A DNA stretch of 64,000 nucleotides from Chryseobacterium gleum (GTDB lineage Bacteria > Bacteroidota > Bacteroidia > Flavobacteriales > Schleiferiaceae). The stretch is from NCBI GenBank assembly GCA_945883565.1, contig CAMCXO010000001.1:62001-126000 (forward strand), read 5' to 3'. The notes under the pieces are model-generated. The model had not been told where the DNA came from. It made no database searches and worked only from the letters and a program-made list of their open reading frames with translations. The position numbers were made by a program, and so were the translations under genes. Positions 23,749-30,329 of the stretch are shown one piece after another (position 1 is the first letter of the stretch; each line of letters begins with the position of its first letter).

Positions 23749-24102
23749 CTTTTTAAGCTTTCCCGTTGCTAAGGTAAGAGCAAAGTTTTATTTGGGTAAG
23801 GTATTTGGCTATGCTCATGAAGTTCAAGTATCTTTTGTGGAGACCAAATAAATGCCTGCGATTTACTGTTGTTTAATTGTTCTTATGTGAACGCATTAAA
23901 AAATGATAAAAACTGATTATACGGGAGCTGCATAAGCCGAAGAGATTGACAAAATTCAATTCCTGAAAGCCAATGAACAGTCATTTAATCCTTCCCAAAA
24001 AAAGGAACTGCATTTTAAATCATCTTTAAACTGATTCAAGAAACAACTTTCCTTACAAAAAATGGTTTAAAAAAATTAAAAATGAAACACTTAGATTAAA
24101 AA
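23749..24102. other. Intergenic stretch before repeat array, no gene seen
   Basis: About 350 AT-rich bases. One short frame at 23936-24034 (32 codons, opening after a stop and without a start codon) has a protein-like composition and may be a gene relic; nothing else is recognisable. No promoter with a full TTTG/TAnnTTTG pair was found. Confidence 0.4.
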
Positions 24103-24570
24103 ACATCAAGGCCCATTTTCAAAAGCACCAAACCCACTTCAAAAGCGTTTAGAGCCATTTAAACGGCATCCATGCCCATTTAAGAAAGCATCTATACCCA
24201 TTTACAATGCGTACATGGCCACTTAAAGCCAGTACATGCCCATTTACAATGTGTACAAGGCCACATAAAGAGTATCCATGCCCATTTACAATGCGGACAT
24301 GGCCACATAAAGAGCATCCATGCCCATTTATAAAGCATCTATACCCATTTACAATGCGTACATGGCCACATAAAGAGCATCCATGCCCATTTAATAAAGC
24401 ATCTATACCCATTTACAAAACGTAAATGGCCACTTTAAAGGCATCCATGCCCATTTAATAAAGCATCTATACCCATTTACAATGCGTACATGGCCACTTA
24501 AAGGGCATTCATATCCATTTACAAAATGTACATGGCCACTAAAGGGGAATACATGCCTATTGACAGCGCG
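24103..24570. repeat. Tandem array of ~21-bp units with ~63-bp higher-order order
   Basis: About 22 units of 20-22 bases. Three variants recur: A (CATCCATGCCCATTTA plus AT filler), B (CATCTATACCCATTTACAA) and C (GTACATGGCCACTTAAAG). Between about 24316 and 24505 they follow the fixed order A-B-C three times, giving a 63-64 base period; the flanks are more degenerate. Because the period is a multiple of three, long open frames cross it on both strands, but the translations are monotonous and unlike protein. No spacers of unique sequence, so not CRISPR. Confidence 0.85.
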
Positions 24571-24681: not shown

Positions 24682-24945
24682 GTCTGCGAACATCTGCGGA
24701 ATCTGTGGGACATTAGTATTGACCGCTGATTGCGCAGATATACGCAGAAACACATCAGCAAAAATCAGAGGTACCTGCGAGGGGATTTTAGTTCCCGCTG
24801 ATTGCGCAGATGTACGCAGAAACACATCAGCGAAAATCAGAGGTACCTGCAAGGGAATTTTAGTTCCCGCTGATTGCGCAGATATACGCAGAAACACATC
24901 AGTGAAAATCAGCGAGGTCTGCGGGAGATTAGTATTGCCCGCGGT
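24682..24945. repeat. 72-bp tandem repeat, three copies
   Basis: Units begin with CCGCTGATTGCGCAGAT at 24723, 24795 and 24867, exactly 72 bases apart, and differ at a few positions. They contain several variants of a CGCAGA / TCAGCG / CTGCGGGA word. The junctions read GGGANATTAGTATTG at the outer ends and GGGANTTTAGTTC inside. The left flank (24682-24709) carries related words in the opposite sense. Both strands stay open because 72 is divisible by three, but no coding signal is seen. Similar CTGCG/CAGAT-rich repeats are, from memory, scattered in Bacteroidota intergenic DNA. Confidence 0.8.
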
Positions 24946-25021
24946 TTGCACAGAACCCAATTTGCCCAAATGGTAGAAAAAACTGAAGCCCTCAAATGTC
25001 CTTCAAAACCCCAAACTGAGC

Positions 25022-26761
25022 TTAAGGAAGTACATTAACTAAAATACCTTGTAATTTCGAAATTGTTAATGGTTTTTCTATATGTTCTATTATCATTGGC
25101 TCATTAAGAGCGCGTTCCATCTCTGTTTTGTTAATGGAAGATGACATGGTTATAATTTTAATGTTTTTTGGGTTTGAGGATTGACTTTTAATCTGGTCCA
25201 AAACAAACCAACTGTTGGGTTCAGACATGTCAATGTCCAAAAACAATAAGAACTCATTGTTCCAGAAATTCTTGGTATTTAAGTGATTAATAAACTGTTG
25301 TCCGTTTGTGAAAGAATTTATTTCGCCTCTACATCCCAATGCCAGTAATAGCTTTTTACTGTTGTTGCTTAACGATTGGTCTTCATGTAAAAAATAAATA
25401 AGCTTGAAGCCAAACGGGCACTTCGAAAATTCGGTTTCTTGGTTTTCCATTATTTCAATTCGGCTTACAATTTGTCTTACTTTTTGGTCCAATTCCTGTG
25501 CGGAACTGCCAATTGCATTAAATAGTACTTCTTCTTGTATGCCATTATCGAAAGCGTTTACGATACTTAAAATTCGTGAAATAGGAGCCCTTACCTCGTG
25601 AGATTGTTGCCAAGCTAAATCTCTTAGTTTTTGATTCTGTAGAATGAGGATTGCATTTCTTTTTTGCAATTCATCTACATTCTTGAAAGTCACCAAAACT
25701 TCTGAACTGTTTTCTTCTACACTTTTAAAGAAAACCTGAGCCCAGAAAGTTTCGTGAGTGCCGTCTTGCTTCAATTCCACCAAACAACTTTCTTCTATTT
25801 CGTTCAAGCTAAGCAATTGTCGTTTTAACTTAAAATTCCCCCTGCCGCTTGAAATAAACCGATCTGCAAATTCTTCTAAAGTGATTTTGTTTCTTGATGT
25901 ATTTAACATGGCCGCCAACGAAGGCGATATCTCTATTTCATTATTTTGCCTGTTGAGCATTAAAAACCCCATTTTCCCCATTTTTAATGCATTGGAAAGT
26001 TGTTTAGAAACCAATTCATAATTGCTCCTAAGCTCCTGAACATCTGTAAGATCATTAACAACACCAAAAAACAGTGTTCTGTCGCTTGATGGTAAGGAAG
26101 ACTGCCTGGCTGCGAAGTGCAAATACTTTCGGTCTCCATTTTTTGACTCGAAAAGGAAGGTGCCTTCTTGGCTCTTTCTTTTGAAAATTTCAGGCAATGT
26201 TTCCGATAATTTATGCCAATTGCCATGCAAGAACACCTTGCCTTCTATATCAGAAAGTTTAGAAAATTTATGCCCCGGATATTGCAATATACTCGCAAAT
26301 TCTGAATTGTGCTGAATTTCATCGTTTTTGAGATTGTACGACCATAATCCCAAATTCAGATTGTCGACAACGGCATTTACAAAACTGTTTCGATAGTTTT
26401 CGTCCGAAATGTCATCCACATATCCAAGTATAAAAGTAGATTTTTTATATTCTATTCGCTTGGCCTTTTCTTGAACTTGACGAATACCCTCTTGGGATAA
26501 GATGGTATAATTTTCTTGCCAAACATCAATCTCTCCTAGCAGTAGCCATTTATAGCTTTCTTCTAACCACTCTCCATTGGCTTCTACAATAAAAGTAGAG
26601 CGCCAACTTTCGAAATTATGTTTTGTTAAATCCGCATCAAATATATCAATCATTTTATTCGAATAAAAAGCCGTATTATTATTTATATGATAAATGTAAC
26701 AAGGTTTGCTGTTCCATGGCATAGTTTTCTTAATAAAATCAATAAGCTTTCCCTTTTCCAT
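25022..26761 (-). CDS. PAS-PAS-PAS-DHp-receiver protein lacking the kinase ATPase domain
   Basis: Signalling protein of 579 residues, soluble by sequence (no TM). Seen: three PAS-like regions (about 20-120, 130-245, 255-365), then a dimerisation/phosphoacceptor helix with His388 in SHEVRAPISRIL, and directly after it (from about 435) a receiver domain with Glu/Asp near HEDQS, phosphoacceptor Asp509 or Asp511 in LFLDIDM, and the lysine in EKPLT. There is no N, G1 or G2 box, so it has no ATP-binding domain. It is the last gene of a phosphorelay operon and could act as phosphotransfer protein or as target of the neighbouring kinase. Role inferred. Confidence 0.82.
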   Translation of the reverse strand: MEKGKLIDFIKKTMPWNSKPCYIYHINNNTAFYSNKMIDIFDADLTKHNFESWRSTFIVEANGEWLEESYKWLLLGEIDVWQENYTILSQEGIRQVQEKAKRIEYKKSTFILGYVDDISDENYRNSFVNAVVDNLNLGLWSYNLKNDEIQHNSEFASILQYPGHKFSKLSDIEGKVFLHGNWHKLSETLPEIFKRKSQEGTFLFESKNGDRKYLHFAARQSSLPSSDRTLFFGVVNDLTDVQELRSNYELVSKQLSNALKMGKMGFLMLNRQNNEIEISPSLAAMLNTSRNKITLEEFADRFISSGRGNFKLKRQLLSLNEIEESCLVELKQDGTHETFWAQVFFKSVEENSSEVLVTFKNVDELQKRNAILILQNQKLRDLAWQQSHEVRAPISRILSIVNAFDNGIQEEVLFNAIGSSAQELDQKVRQIVSRIEIMENQETEFSKCPFGFKLIYFLHEDQSLSNNSKKLLLALGCRGEINSFTNGQQFINHLNTKNFWNNEFLLFLDIDMSEPNSWFVLDQIKSQSSNPKNIKIITMSSSINKTEMERALNEPMIIEHIEKPLTISKLQGILVNVLP

Positions 26762-26830
26762 TTAGTTCATTTAATATGATAATAAAGGTCTAATAAAAGT
26801 TTAGTTTATTTAATTGCTTATTAAACAATA

Positions 26831-27220
26831 TTATTGATAATTAATCAAATTAATATACTTTTTAACAATCAATTTTATTTCTTCTATTTTGAAAGGCTTT
26901 CCTATAAAATCGTCGAATCCAGACTGAAGCGCTTTATCAATTGTTTCTTTGTCTACAAAAGCGCTTATGGCCACGATGGGTATTTTTCTATTGGTTGGCC
27001 TCTTGTAAATATATTCTGCCAATGAAATGCCATTTCCGTCGGGCAGCATTAAATCGCTTAAAACGATATCAGGATTTTCGATTAGAATACTCTCACGGGC
27101 TTGTTTTAAATTATATGCCAAAGAAAGCTGTAATTCAAATTCTTTGAGTATTTCTGAAATAATTTCAGAAATATAACGGTCGTCTTCTACAACTAAAACT
27201 TTGAACTTTCGGGTAAGCAT
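26831..27220 (-). CDS. Single-domain response regulator (CheY/Spo0F-like)
   Basis: 129-residue receiver with no output domain. Seen: acidic pair in VLVVEDDR, phosphoacceptor Asp56 in VLSDLMLP, Ser in AISAF, and Lys108 in IGKPF. The ATG at 27220 is chosen (MLTRKF); an upstream ATG at 27250 would add ten residues absent from the family. It overlaps the 3' end of the kinase gene by 28 bases, so it is translationally coupled to it. Probably shuttles phosphate between the kinase and the DHp-REC protein downstream, inferred from context. Confidence 0.88.
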   Translation of the reverse strand: MLTRKFKVLVVEDDRYISEIISEILKEFELQLSLAYNLKQARESILIENPDIVLSDLMLPDGNGISLAEYIYKRPTNRKIPIVAISAFVDKETIDKALQSGFDDFIGKPFKIEEIKLIVKKYINLINYQ

Positions 27221-29526
27221 GTTAACGGAATTCTTATGGTGAACATACAACCATTAGAACCATCAGATTGTGCGAATATTTCGCCATTAAACAATTCAAT
27301 TATTTGTTTGGCAATGGGTAAACCTAAACCAGTTCCTTCAATGCTTTGGGTGTTTGGTGCACGATAGAAAGATTCGAAAATAGAAATTAAACTATTTACT
27401 GGAATTCCAATGCCGTAATCTTTAACTTTTAATATACCGTATTCATTTGATTTTTCAACAATTACTTCTATAGGTATATTTGATTTTCCGTATTTAAATG
27501 CATTATCGAAAAGGTTGTAAACCACATGGCTGAACAGAAGCTTGTCAATTAAAACCTGGATATTCTGCTGTTTTCGTATAAAAATGAAGGAAGATGAATC
27601 AATTTCTATGTTTCGTTCATTGAATTCAACAACAAGACCTTCTACAAAATTTGCCAAGTCGACTTCTTCCGGCTTATAATCTTGTTTTTTAGATGATAAT
27701 TTGCCCAGCAAAAGAATGTCGTTCATTAAATTAGTAACCCTATCTATTTCCGTGGTTATTCGATTTAAATGGGTGTCAAAATCCGTTAGGTTTTTTTTCT
27801 GTAATTTGTATTGAATTAATTCTGTATTTCCACGTATTATGGTAAGTGGAGTTCTAAACTGGTGTGAGGCCATGCTTACGAAGCTTGTACGCTCGTCGGC
27901 GAGCTTTTGTAAAGCGCTGTTAATTTTTTCTTTTTCTAATTCTAAGCGTTTGCTTTCGGTATTGTCTCTGATGAAAGCCAAATAGGTTGAATTAGAAGTT
28001 GAGGGGGTTTTTAGAAGTTTGAATAAAGCTTCCAGGAAAAACTCTTTATTGTTGTACTTACGCAGAAATGTAAATTTTAAGTATTCGCCTTTTTTTAGTT
28101 TTTTAATTGATTCTATATGTACATTTCTAACTTCGTTTTCAAGTAAGTCGAAAAAAGGGGTTCCCGTAATTCTAGAAGCTGCTATACCCAATACTGTTTT
28201 TGATGATTGACTGGAATTTAATACCTTAAAGCTCGAATCTAGAATAAGAATTAAATCAACAGCCTCTTCTTGAATGGTTTGCAAAGTTATAAGAGATTCT
28301 TCCAGTGCGATGCGGTTGTTAACATTTTCGTGATCAGGTATTAAAGAGCCAAAAATCTTCTTTTTATCGCTTACGCTTTTCGATAAATAGAATTTAAACC
28401 ATTTTGGGCCTTTATGGGTGTTTAGTTGTAACTCGAGGAAAAGATGTACTGAATTGGAATTTAAAAACTCGGCTATTGTATCGAGATGTTTTCGATCGTC
28501 TGTGTGTATAAGGTTATTGAAGTCAATTTGATTATTAAAGACGATTGGTATGAGTTTATCGTGGTTTTTGTTTAGAATATTAAATGTAAATGAATGGTTG
28601 AATTCTAGAAAGTAAAAAGGCAGTGATTGAAGTATACTTTCTTGATACCGTAAATTTTCTTCAATTTTGTTGTTTCGTTCCTCCAGTTCGGTAATGTCAG
28701 TAGATAATCCAAGAACATATTTCTCTCCATGAAAAGTCATGGGCGACTTTATGGTTTGAAAAAGTCTTACATCGCCATTAAATTTTGTGAAAGGTTCAAT
28801 AAGTGTTACCGATTTGTTTTCTAAAAGAACAATATTATCTATTCTATCGAAGTTTTGCACTTCTTCATTATGACCATGAACTTCTGCATTAGGTTTGAAC
28901 TCCAGATCTTCTAATGGTAAATTAAAAAGCGCTCCTACAGCCTTATTTACTTTAATGAAATTACCGTACTTATCTTTTATAAAAATAAGGTGAGGGCTTG
29001 CATTAAAGATGGTGTCGAGTAGGGTGTTTTTTTGCTCGAGTTCTATGGCATTGATATGTTCTTTGTTTATGTCTCTTATGGTGCCAATAAGTCTAATGCC
29101 TTTTCCTTCGGAATTCTTTAGCAGTTTTGCTTTGTGTTCTGTATAAATGTATTGACCTGATTTGGTTCGCATTCGCTGAATGCTTTTACCCCAATACTCA
29201 CCATCAGACAAGAGAAACGCCTGAACTTTTTCTTTGGCAGTATGCAAATCATCTTGATGCACCAAGTCCTCCCAGGTTGAGAATTTGTGTGGCAATTCAT
29301 TTGGTAAATAGCCTAGAATTTGAAACCATTGAGAGCTAAAATGAACAACATCTGTTTCCAATTCCCAATCCCAAACGCCCTCTTTAGTTCCTTCGAGAGC
29401 CAACAGATTTCGCGCGCTTTCAACATTAACGTAATGTTCTAGAAACAGAGCATTTAGTTCGGGCTTGGCTTCAATTTGGTTGAGGATTTCTTGAAATTCT
29501 TTGGAGAACATATAGGAAAGACTCAA
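27193..29526 (-). CDS. Multi-PAS hybrid-less sensor histidine kinase
   Basis: 777-residue kinase without obvious membrane segments, so cytoplasmic. Seen: PAS domains at roughly 35-155 (with GTKEGVWDWE), 165-285 (FNASPHLIFIKDKYGNFIKVN), 300-400 and 415-530; then HisKA with His555 in SHQFRTPLT, N box NLFDNAFKYGKS, G1 KDYGIGIP and G2 GTGLGLPIAK. The PAS-rich front suggests sensing of a cytoplasmic ligand, redox state or light/energy signal, but no haem or flavin motif was recognised. Two bases separate it from the upstream AraC-type regulator gene. Confidence 0.92.
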   Translation of the reverse strand: MSLSYMFSKEFQEILNQIEAKPELNALFLEHYVNVESARNLLALEGTKEGVWDWELETDVVHFSSQWFQILGYLPNELPHKFSTWEDLVHQDDLHTAKEKVQAFLLSDGEYWGKSIQRMRTKSGQYIYTEHKAKLLKNSEGKGIRLIGTIRDINKEHINAIELEQKNTLLDTIFNASPHLIFIKDKYGNFIKVNKAVGALFNLPLEDLEFKPNAEVHGHNEEVQNFDRIDNIVLLENKSVTLIEPFTKFNGDVRLFQTIKSPMTFHGEKYVLGLSTDITELEERNNKIEENLRYQESILQSLPFYFLEFNHSFTFNILNKNHDKLIPIVFNNQIDFNNLIHTDDRKHLDTIAEFLNSNSVHLFLELQLNTHKGPKWFKFYLSKSVSDKKKIFGSLIPDHENVNNRIALEESLITLQTIQEEAVDLILILDSSFKVLNSSQSSKTVLGIAASRITGTPFFDLLENEVRNVHIESIKKLKKGEYLKFTFLRKYNNKEFFLEALFKLLKTPSTSNSTYLAFIRDNTESKRLELEKEKINSALQKLADERTSFVSMASHQFRTPLTIIRGNTELIQYKLQKKNLTDFDTHLNRITTEIDRVTNLMNDILLLGKLSSKKQDYKPEEVDLANFVEGLVVEFNERNIEIDSSSFIFIRKQQNIQVLIDKLLFSHVVYNLFDNAFKYGKSNIPIEVIVEKSNEYGILKVKDYGIGIPVNSLISIFESFYRAPNTQSIEGTGLGLPIAKQIIELFNGEIFAQSDGSNGCMFTIRIPLTCLPESSKF

Positions 29527-29528
29527 AC

Positions 29529-30329
29529 TTAGTTTTGATTGTTTTCTTGTGTTTTTTGAAATCGCAGCGGGCTAATTCCGAATTCTTTTTTAAAGTCGAC
29601 AGAGAAGTAAGTGATATTACTGTAATCTAACATTTGGGCTATTTCGGAAATGTTTCCGGCGTGTTTGGCCAATAAAATTTTGGCCTTATTAAGCCGTTTT
29701 TTTCGGCAATAGTTTTTGCATGTGGTATTGAGGTGATTTCGGAAATGGCGATTTAAGGTATTGGTGCTCATACCCAAAGCTTCGGCCAGTTGTTTGCATG
29801 TTGGAAACTTATCGTTTTCGAAATTATTAATTAACAGCTCTATACGCTGCCTGAATCGATGGGCTTCTGAACTAATTTCGGTGCTTAGTTCGGCTTTAAT
29901 GGCATAGTTGAATTCAATTTCTTTGGTATAATTCATTAAGCGCTTCAAAATGGTAATCAATTCTTCGTTGGCAAAAGGCTTTGATAAGAAATAATTCGCC
30001 CCGGAATTAAGACTCTTAAGCCGATTGCTTAGATCGCTGTAAGCGCTCAACATCAAAATAGGGGTGTTTTCGTAACCTAGTTCTCTTCTAATTCCACCTA
30101 CAATTTCGAAGCCTGTTTCGCCCGGTAGGTCGATGTCGCATATAATAAGGTCGAATTTAATTCTGGAAATGGATTCCAAGGCTTCACTTCCATTCAGTGC
30201 GGTTCCTACTTCGAAGCCTTCAAGTTGTAAAATTTCTTCAAGGAAAAGCAAAATACCAGGGTTGTCGTCGATAATAAGCACCTTGCCTAAGTTGCTTGAA
30301 GAAGATTGATTTTGTGTGTTGCTTTGCAT
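29529..30329 (-). CDS. Response regulator with AraC-type DNA-binding domain
   Basis: 266 residues: receiver domain (about 14-130) with DDN, phosphoacceptor Asp65 in IICDIDLPG and Lys117 in LSKPF; a linker of about 35 residues; then two helix-turn-helix units of AraC type (LAEALGMSTNTLNRHFR and ISEIAQMLDYSNITYFSVDFKKEFG). First gene of the four-gene phosphorelay unit and the only one with a DNA-binding domain, so the output of the locus is transcriptional. The 600 bases upstream hold no other clear gene; imperfect -7 boxes lie within 60 bases of the start. Confidence 0.92.
   Translation of the reverse strand: MQSNTQNQSSSSNLGKVLIIDDNPGILLFLEEILQLEGFEVGTALNGSEALESISRIKFDLIICDIDLPGETGFEIVGGIRRELGYENTPILMLSAYSDLSNRLKSLNSGANYFLSKPFANEELITILKRLMNYTKEIEFNYAIKAELSTEISSEAHRFRQRIELLINNFENDKFPTCKQLAEALGMSTNTLNRHFRNHLNTTCKNYCRKKRLNKAKILLAKHAGNISEIAQMLDYSNITYFSVDFKKEFGISPLRFQKTQENNQN

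What the first reader, a model, noticed from the sequence alone, without database searches (positions are those of the whole stretch)
25022..30329. Four-gene phosphorelay with a PAS-DHp-receiver protein that lacks an ATPase domain
Seen: AraC-type response regulator, multi-PAS histidine kinase (His555 with N, G1, G2 boxes), a lone receiver (Asp56) and a fourth protein with three PAS regions, a DHp helix with His388 in SHEVRAP, and a receiver right behind it, without N/G1/G2 boxes. The genes are packed head-to-tail with 2-69 bp gaps or overlap. From established knowledge of Spo0F/Spo0B-type relays, a DHp without ATPase can move phosphate between receivers. Inference: kinase -> lone receiver -> DHp-REC -> AraC-type regulator, or the DHp-REC as a decoy or sensor that tunes the kinase. 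A PAS-bearing phosphotransfer protein would let a second signal enter mid-relay.
Basis: partly seen in the sequence, partly recalled or inferred. Interest (0 to 1): 0.62.

Follow-up and report, generated by a model that had tools for sequence, protein, structure and literature searches.

The report
Sensor phosphotransfer protein without kinase domain
A bacterial signalling protein that looks like a histidine kinase but has no ATP-burning domain proves to belong to a large family across the Bacteroidota that probably passes phosphate on instead of making it, often in operons next to a true kinase.

Summary
The 25022-26761(-) product is three PAS folds, a two-helix DHp hairpin with His388 and a C-terminal receiver (Asp509), with no ATPase domain. 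Pfam HisKA misses it, but a leave-one-out family profile finds it at 70 bits. It is not a one-off. It belongs to a Bacteroidota-wide clade of DHp domains ('IAWxQSHxVRAPLAR'), of which no member scoring 70 bits or more (121, plus 22 in a second sample) carries an ATPase. One loss explains the clade on a tree. The clade has also lost the acidic residue after His needed for kinase activity (111/119) and the Thr/Asn at H+4 needed for phosphatase activity (119/119), while keeping His. Elsewhere these proteins often sit in kinase - lone receiver - DHp - receiver operons; a similar operon lies in this same genome. This supports the phosphotransfer idea for the family. The twist here: the protein's own receiver is of the family's partner type but has His-Glu instead of Asp-Asp at the Mg site, a pseudo-receiver by published definition, so the drawn relay order is doubtful. 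HisKA-without-ATPase proteins are already described in archaea; the Bacteroidota clade, its residue losses and its operon appear undescribed in the papers I could search.

The parts
25022..26761 (-). P1: PAS-PAS-PAS-DHp-REC protein, 579 aa, no ATPase domain; the finding itself
25439..25675 (-). DHp hairpin of P1 (residues 363-441), phospho-acceptor His388 in QSHEVRAP; H+1 Glu, H+4 Ala
   Evidence: leave-one-out profile; AlphaFold helices 363-404 / 410-441; invariant H, R+3, P+5 in the clade
25031..25402 (-). C-terminal receiver of P1 (residues 454-577): Asp509, Ser540, Lys563 kept, acidic pair replaced by His459-Glu460
25679..26701 (-). three PAS folds of P1 (about residues 21-117, 138-237, 264-361)
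   Evidence: AlphaFold secondary structure; Pfam PAS_9 only for the third, below cut-off; Foldseek hits are PAS tandem sensors
26831..27220 (-). lone receiver (Asp56, ATG start), generic REC type, overlaps the kinase gene by 28 bases
27193..29526 (-). PAS-rich histidine kinase with HisKA (His555, SHQFRTPL) and complete HATPase
29529..30329 (-). AraC-type response regulator (REC Asp65 - HTH_18)

Best explanation
P1 is a PAS-sensing histidine phosphotransfer protein of a Bacteroidota DHp clade that lost its ATPase domain once and since then works downstream of true kinases. Shown by sequence: the architecture, absence of the ATPase across the clade, loss of the kinase and phosphatase residues with His kept, the partner receiver type, and frequent kinase-receiver-DHp-receiver operons. 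Inferred: the neighbouring PAS kinase phosphorylates the lone receiver (and perhaps the AraC regulator), His388 exchanges phosphate with that receiver, and the PAS domains gate this exchange. P1's own receiver, altered at the metal site, most likely acts as a weak acceptor or as an intramolecular plug on the DHp rather than as a normal relay step.
For: No ATPase in P1, in 121 clade members of 70 bits or more, or in 22 members of a second sample chosen by DHp alone. HATPase presence changes once on the DHp tree, SH-aLRT 96. H+1 is acidic in only 8 of 119 members against 33 of 37 neighbouring complete kinases; H+4 is Ala, Gly or Ser in 119/119; His, R+3 and P+5 are invariant among those 119. The acid is needed for kinase activity and Thr/Asn for phosphatase activity (PMC3510030). 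39 of 78 distinct DHp genes in the named loci have a complete kinase in the same-strand gene run just upstream, commonly as kinase-REC-[REC-PAS-DHp]-REC with overlapping genes; the same genome carries kinase-REC-[REC-PAS-DHp] on another contig. P1's REC is of the partner type, +31.7 bits. Precedent: the Pak-SdrG-PhyT-PhyR relay (PMC5898713).
Against: No phosphotransfer was measured. DHp-receiver coevolution was not detectable with 97 pairs. P1's receiver is a pseudo-receiver by definition, and P1 itself keeps Glu at H+1. P1 and the AraC regulator have no orthologue in the sampled genus and family, so this exact operon is not conserved. Many clade members, sampled by DHp alone, have no receiver or kinase next door.
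Confidence: 0.6

Rival explanations
1. P1 is a non-catalytic sensor or decoy: its DHp binds the kinase (as a heterodimer) or the lone receiver and its pseudo-receiver blocks or titrates them, so PAS signals tune the neighbouring kinase without phosphate passing through His388.
For: P1's receiver has His-Glu at the metal site, while all 96 other aligned partner-type receivers have acidic residues at both sites and 95 keep the Asp acceptor; a pseudo-receiver that binds and inhibits HisKA exists in ShkA (PMC12632262).
Against: His388 and its surroundings are tightly conserved across the clade (H, R+3, P+5), which a mere docking helix would not need; P1's receiver keeps Asp509, Ser540 and Lys563.
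Confidence: 0.25
2. The clade are dedicated phosphatases of receivers, as suggested for archaeal HisKA-only proteins.
For: HisKA phosphatase activity can reside in the DHp, and a phosphatase function was proposed for the archaeal cases (PMC5847659).
Against: The Thr/Asn at H+4 needed for phosphatase activity in HisKA proteins (PMC3510030) is Ala/Gly/Ser in 119 of 119 members.
Confidence: 0.1
3. P1 is a decaying hybrid kinase (lost ATPase, degenerating receiver) without function.
For: Altered metal site in the receiver; no orthologue in the genus.
Against: Intact 579-codon frame; the ATPase loss is old and shared by the whole clade; its DHp still fits the clade profile at 70 bits in leave-one-out.
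Confidence: 0.05

Closest known systems
Archaeal nonenzymatic HK-like proteins ('HisKA, no HATPase'; REC-PAS/GAF-HisKA such as AF_1472), Galperin et al. 2018, PMC5847659
   Same: PAS sensors plus HisKA-like DHp with His, no HATPase; some with a receiver
   Different: Archaea (Archaeoglobi, Methanomicrobia), none studied experimentally; kinase/phosphatase residues, partner receivers and operons were not reported in the passages read
PhyT (Sphingomonas) in the Pak-SdrG-PhyT-PhyR relay, PMC5898713
   Different: PhyT is membrane-bound and, from general knowledge, HisKA2-like with a degenerate ATPase; here the ATPase is absent altogether and the sensors are PAS
Spo0B and ChpT
   Same: dimeric DHp used for phosphotransfer between receivers
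   Different: both keep a degenerate ATPase-like domain (ChpT: PMC9981736; Spo0B from general knowledge) and carry no PAS sensors or receiver
Complete Bacteroidota kinases with SHNLRAPLSNL DHp followed by a partner-type receiver (for example L153, L162-L164)
   Same: among the nearest complete-kinase DHp relatives, with the same receiver type next door
   Different: they have the HATPase; the CA-less clade is set apart by one loss

Membership tests
Histidine kinase (HisKA type) | HATPase_c domain behind the DHp | tested here: not met
   no match in Pfam or with a local model
Histidine kinase (HisKA type) | HisKA DHp hairpin with phospho-acceptor His | tested here: met
   family profile leave-one-out 70 bits and predicted hairpin; Pfam HisKA itself does not hit P1 and hits three paralogues below cut-off
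'HisKA, no HATPase' nonenzymatic HK-like protein (Galperin 2018) | sensor domains plus HisKA-like DHp with His and no HATPase | tested here: met
P2CS phosphotransfer protein class | HisKA or HPT but neither HATPase nor receiver in the protein | tested here: not met
   P1 carries a C-terminal REC (definition); most clade relatives with the receiver in the next gene and no N-terminal REC would meet it
Spo0B/PhyT-like phosphotransferase | phosphate moves from one receiver to another via His | not testable with these tools
   needs in vitro transfer
Canonical receiver domain (P1 C-terminal) | five residues DD, D, T/S, K | tested here: not met
   DD1 is His459, DD2 is Glu460; Asp509, Ser540, Lys563 present; pseudo-receiver by the definition in PMC12632262
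Hpt domain (PF01627) | match to the Hpt model | tested here: not met
   Pfam scan of P1 shows none; the genome has two Hpt matches elsewhere

The most novel reading that the evidence does not exclude
Bacteroidota carry a widespread, once-evolved clade of sensor-bearing DHp domains specialised as histidine phosphotransferases (kinase and phosphatase residues both lost), running His-Asp-His-Asp relays from recurrent four-gene operons and letting a second signal enter in mid-relay. P1 is a fused version with an autoinhibitory pseudo-receiver.
Probability: 0.45. Interest if true: 0.75.

Novelty: new variant of a known kind. Interest (0 to 1): 0.55.

Why it matters
Such proteins are easily annotated as histidine kinases or plain PAS proteins. 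If the reading is right, many Bacteroidota signalling networks contain a hidden layer of signal-gated phosphotransferases, and wiring predicted from kinase-regulator pairs alone is incomplete. The loss of both catalytic residues makes a sharp, testable prediction: transfer without kinase or phosphatase activity. In this genome four such proteins stand beside one stand-alone Hpt and one Hpt in a large protein.

Tried and rejected
(1) Coiled-coil linker instead of DHp: rejected, because the second helix and its ELD motif are conserved and the family profile matches in leave-one-out. (2) ATPase hidden in a separate or frameshifted neighbour: clade members end 0-31 residues after the hairpin, in many genera, or run straight into a receiver; the next gene is often a receiver. 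(3) DHp-receiver coevolution by mutual information on 97 pairs: inconclusive, top signal no stronger than mispaired controls. (4) Orthologues of P1 or the AraC regulator to test conservation of this operon: none found. (5) Empty-site synteny in the genus: flanking genes lie on different contigs there, no answer. (7) The high share of receivers next door is partly selection, since the query held DHp plus REC; in a DHp-only sample only about 3 of 22 had one directly behind. (8) Paper searches for this Bacteroidota family found no description; the library holds open-licence papers only.

Full report
What is there. Four genes on the minus strand, 30329 down to 25022, encode REC-AraC, a PAS-rich kinase, a lone receiver and P1. 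Pfam finds HisKA (51 bits) and HATPase_c (80 bits) in the kinase, good receivers in the lone REC and the AraC regulator, and in P1 only a weak receiver (25.1 bits, cut-off 30.2) and a weak PAS_9. AlphaFold gives P1 a mean pLDDT of 84.5 with three PAS folds, a helical hairpin 363-404/410-441 carrying His388 and a full (beta-alpha)5 receiver 454-577; pTM is 0.45, so domain packing is not resolved. Foldseek against the PDB returns PAS tandem sensors first.

Is the His388 region a DHp? Pfam HisKA does not hit P1. Three paralogues in the same genome hit HisKA below the cut-off (19.0-23.7 bits) and align with P1 over the whole hairpin. A profile of 17 relatives without P1 finds P1 at 70 bits, E 7.6e-24, residues 367-440. 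No HATPase match appears even with filters off.

How common is it? The DHp profile matches 159 of 296 Bacteroidota genomes at E<=1e-6, with up to 18 matches per genome, some of them complete kinases. One motif gave 438 relatives in the GTDB collection; the best 80 are all Bacteroidota. Of 121 members at 70 bits or more none has an HATPase; 15 have a fused C-terminal receiver and 82 a receiver in the next, often overlapping, gene. That share is inflated, because the query held DHp plus receiver. In a sample chosen by DHp alone, 22 of 22 members at 70 bits or more lack the ATPase, but only about 3 have a receiver directly behind. Between 35 and 70 bits, 15 of 20 are complete kinases, and nine of the 20 have a partner-type receiver next door. 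On a DHp tree, HATPase presence changes once (SH-aLRT 96; 79 columns, so forks inside the clade are weak). The clade thus looks like one old loss from a kinase-receiver pair.

Residues. In the HisKA motif H-E/D-x-x-T/N the acid is needed for kinase activity and the Thr/Asn for phosphatase activity (PMC3510030). In 119 CA-less members with a readable motif, H+1 is acidic in only 8 (P1 is one of them), H+4 is Ala 114, Gly 4, Ser 1, and His, R+3 and P+5 are invariant; of the two members outside the 119, L030 has Tyr in place of His. In 37 neighbouring complete kinases whose box could be read, H+1 is Asp or Glu in 33. A phosphotransfer site needs neither residue. The H-(hydrophobic)2-R-A/G pattern recalls Hpt domains (H-x-x-K-G), which is from general knowledge and an inference.

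Operons. Among the named loci, 39 of 78 distinct DHp genes have a complete kinase in the same-strand gene run just upstream, most often kinase - lone REC - [REC-PAS-DHp] - REC or kinase - [REC-PAS-DHp] - REC, in Gillisia, Salegentibacter, Cellulophaga, Flavobacterium, Confluentibacter, Belliella, Mongoliibacter, Algoriphagus, Marivirga and others. Seven of these kinases were checked in Pfam and all have HisKA and HATPase_c. The window's own genome has kinase (1737 aa) - REC - [REC-PAS-DHp] with overlapping genes on contig C41, and an orphan partner-type receiver on C20. The window operon follows the same plan with other parts: its kinase H box is SHQFRTPL rather than SHDLQEPL, and its lone REC is generic.

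P1's own receiver. Profiles of partner receivers and of other receivers separate well: all 41 held-out partner receivers score higher on the partner model, and 59 of 71 held-out others score higher on the other. P1's receiver belongs to the partner type (+31.7 bits); the lone REC and AraC REC do not (-59.7, -58.6). All 96 other aligned partner-type receivers have acidic residues at both metal positions and 95 have the Asp acceptor; P1 has His459-Glu460, with spacing to the next landmarks that leaves no room for a shifted alignment. By the definition in PMC12632262 (any of five residues missing) it is a pseudo-receiver. Asp509, Ser540 and Lys563 remain, so weak phosphorylation is not excluded. 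A pseudo-receiver that binds and inhibits HisKA is known in ShkA.

What is known. P2CS files HisKA proteins without HATPase or receiver as phosphotransfer proteins. Galperin et al. describe archaeal PAS/GAF-HisKA proteins without HATPase, some with receivers, and suggest acceptor, transfer or phosphatase roles, none tested. PhyT is a proven phosphotransferase between a single-domain receiver and an output regulator. ChpT keeps a degenerate ATPase domain. I found no paper on the Bacteroidota clade in an open-licence library; absence there is not proof of novelty.

Limits. No biochemistry. Coevolution of DHp and partner receiver was not detectable with 97 pairs. P1 and the AraC regulator have no orthologues in the sampled relatives, so this operon's own order cannot be tested by conservation. 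Which receiver talks to His388, and in which direction, is inference.

Noticed in passing
window 24096-24526 and 24703-24954: Two tandem repeat arrays just downstream of P1 (period 21/64 and period 72); nature unknown.
   Followed up: no
L147:1818-8492 (own genome contig C41): Kinase (1737 aa, many PAS domains) - REC - REC-PAS-DHp operon without its final receiver; an orphan partner-type receiver sits alone on contig C20 (L005:1441-1908).
   Followed up: partly
L153, L154, L162-L164, L167, L170, L171: Complete kinases with SHNLRAPLSNL-type DHp are followed by the same partner-type receiver, suggesting the pair from which the CA-less clade arose.
   Followed up: partly
L045/L151 (G150): DHp gene and receiver gene lie in one frame with a single TAA between them; loss of that stop would give a P1-like fusion.
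   Followed up: no
L085:5092-6654; L030; L126: L085 is a fused DHp-receiver whose receiver has lost its Asp acceptor (Asn); L030 has Tyr in place of the phospho-acceptor His; L126 has Tyr in place of the Ser before it.
   Followed up: no
G118, G204: Genomes with 12-16 DHp-profile matches, many on large multi-PAS proteins without ATPase and with no receiver or kinase nearby; source of phosphate unknown.
   Followed up: no
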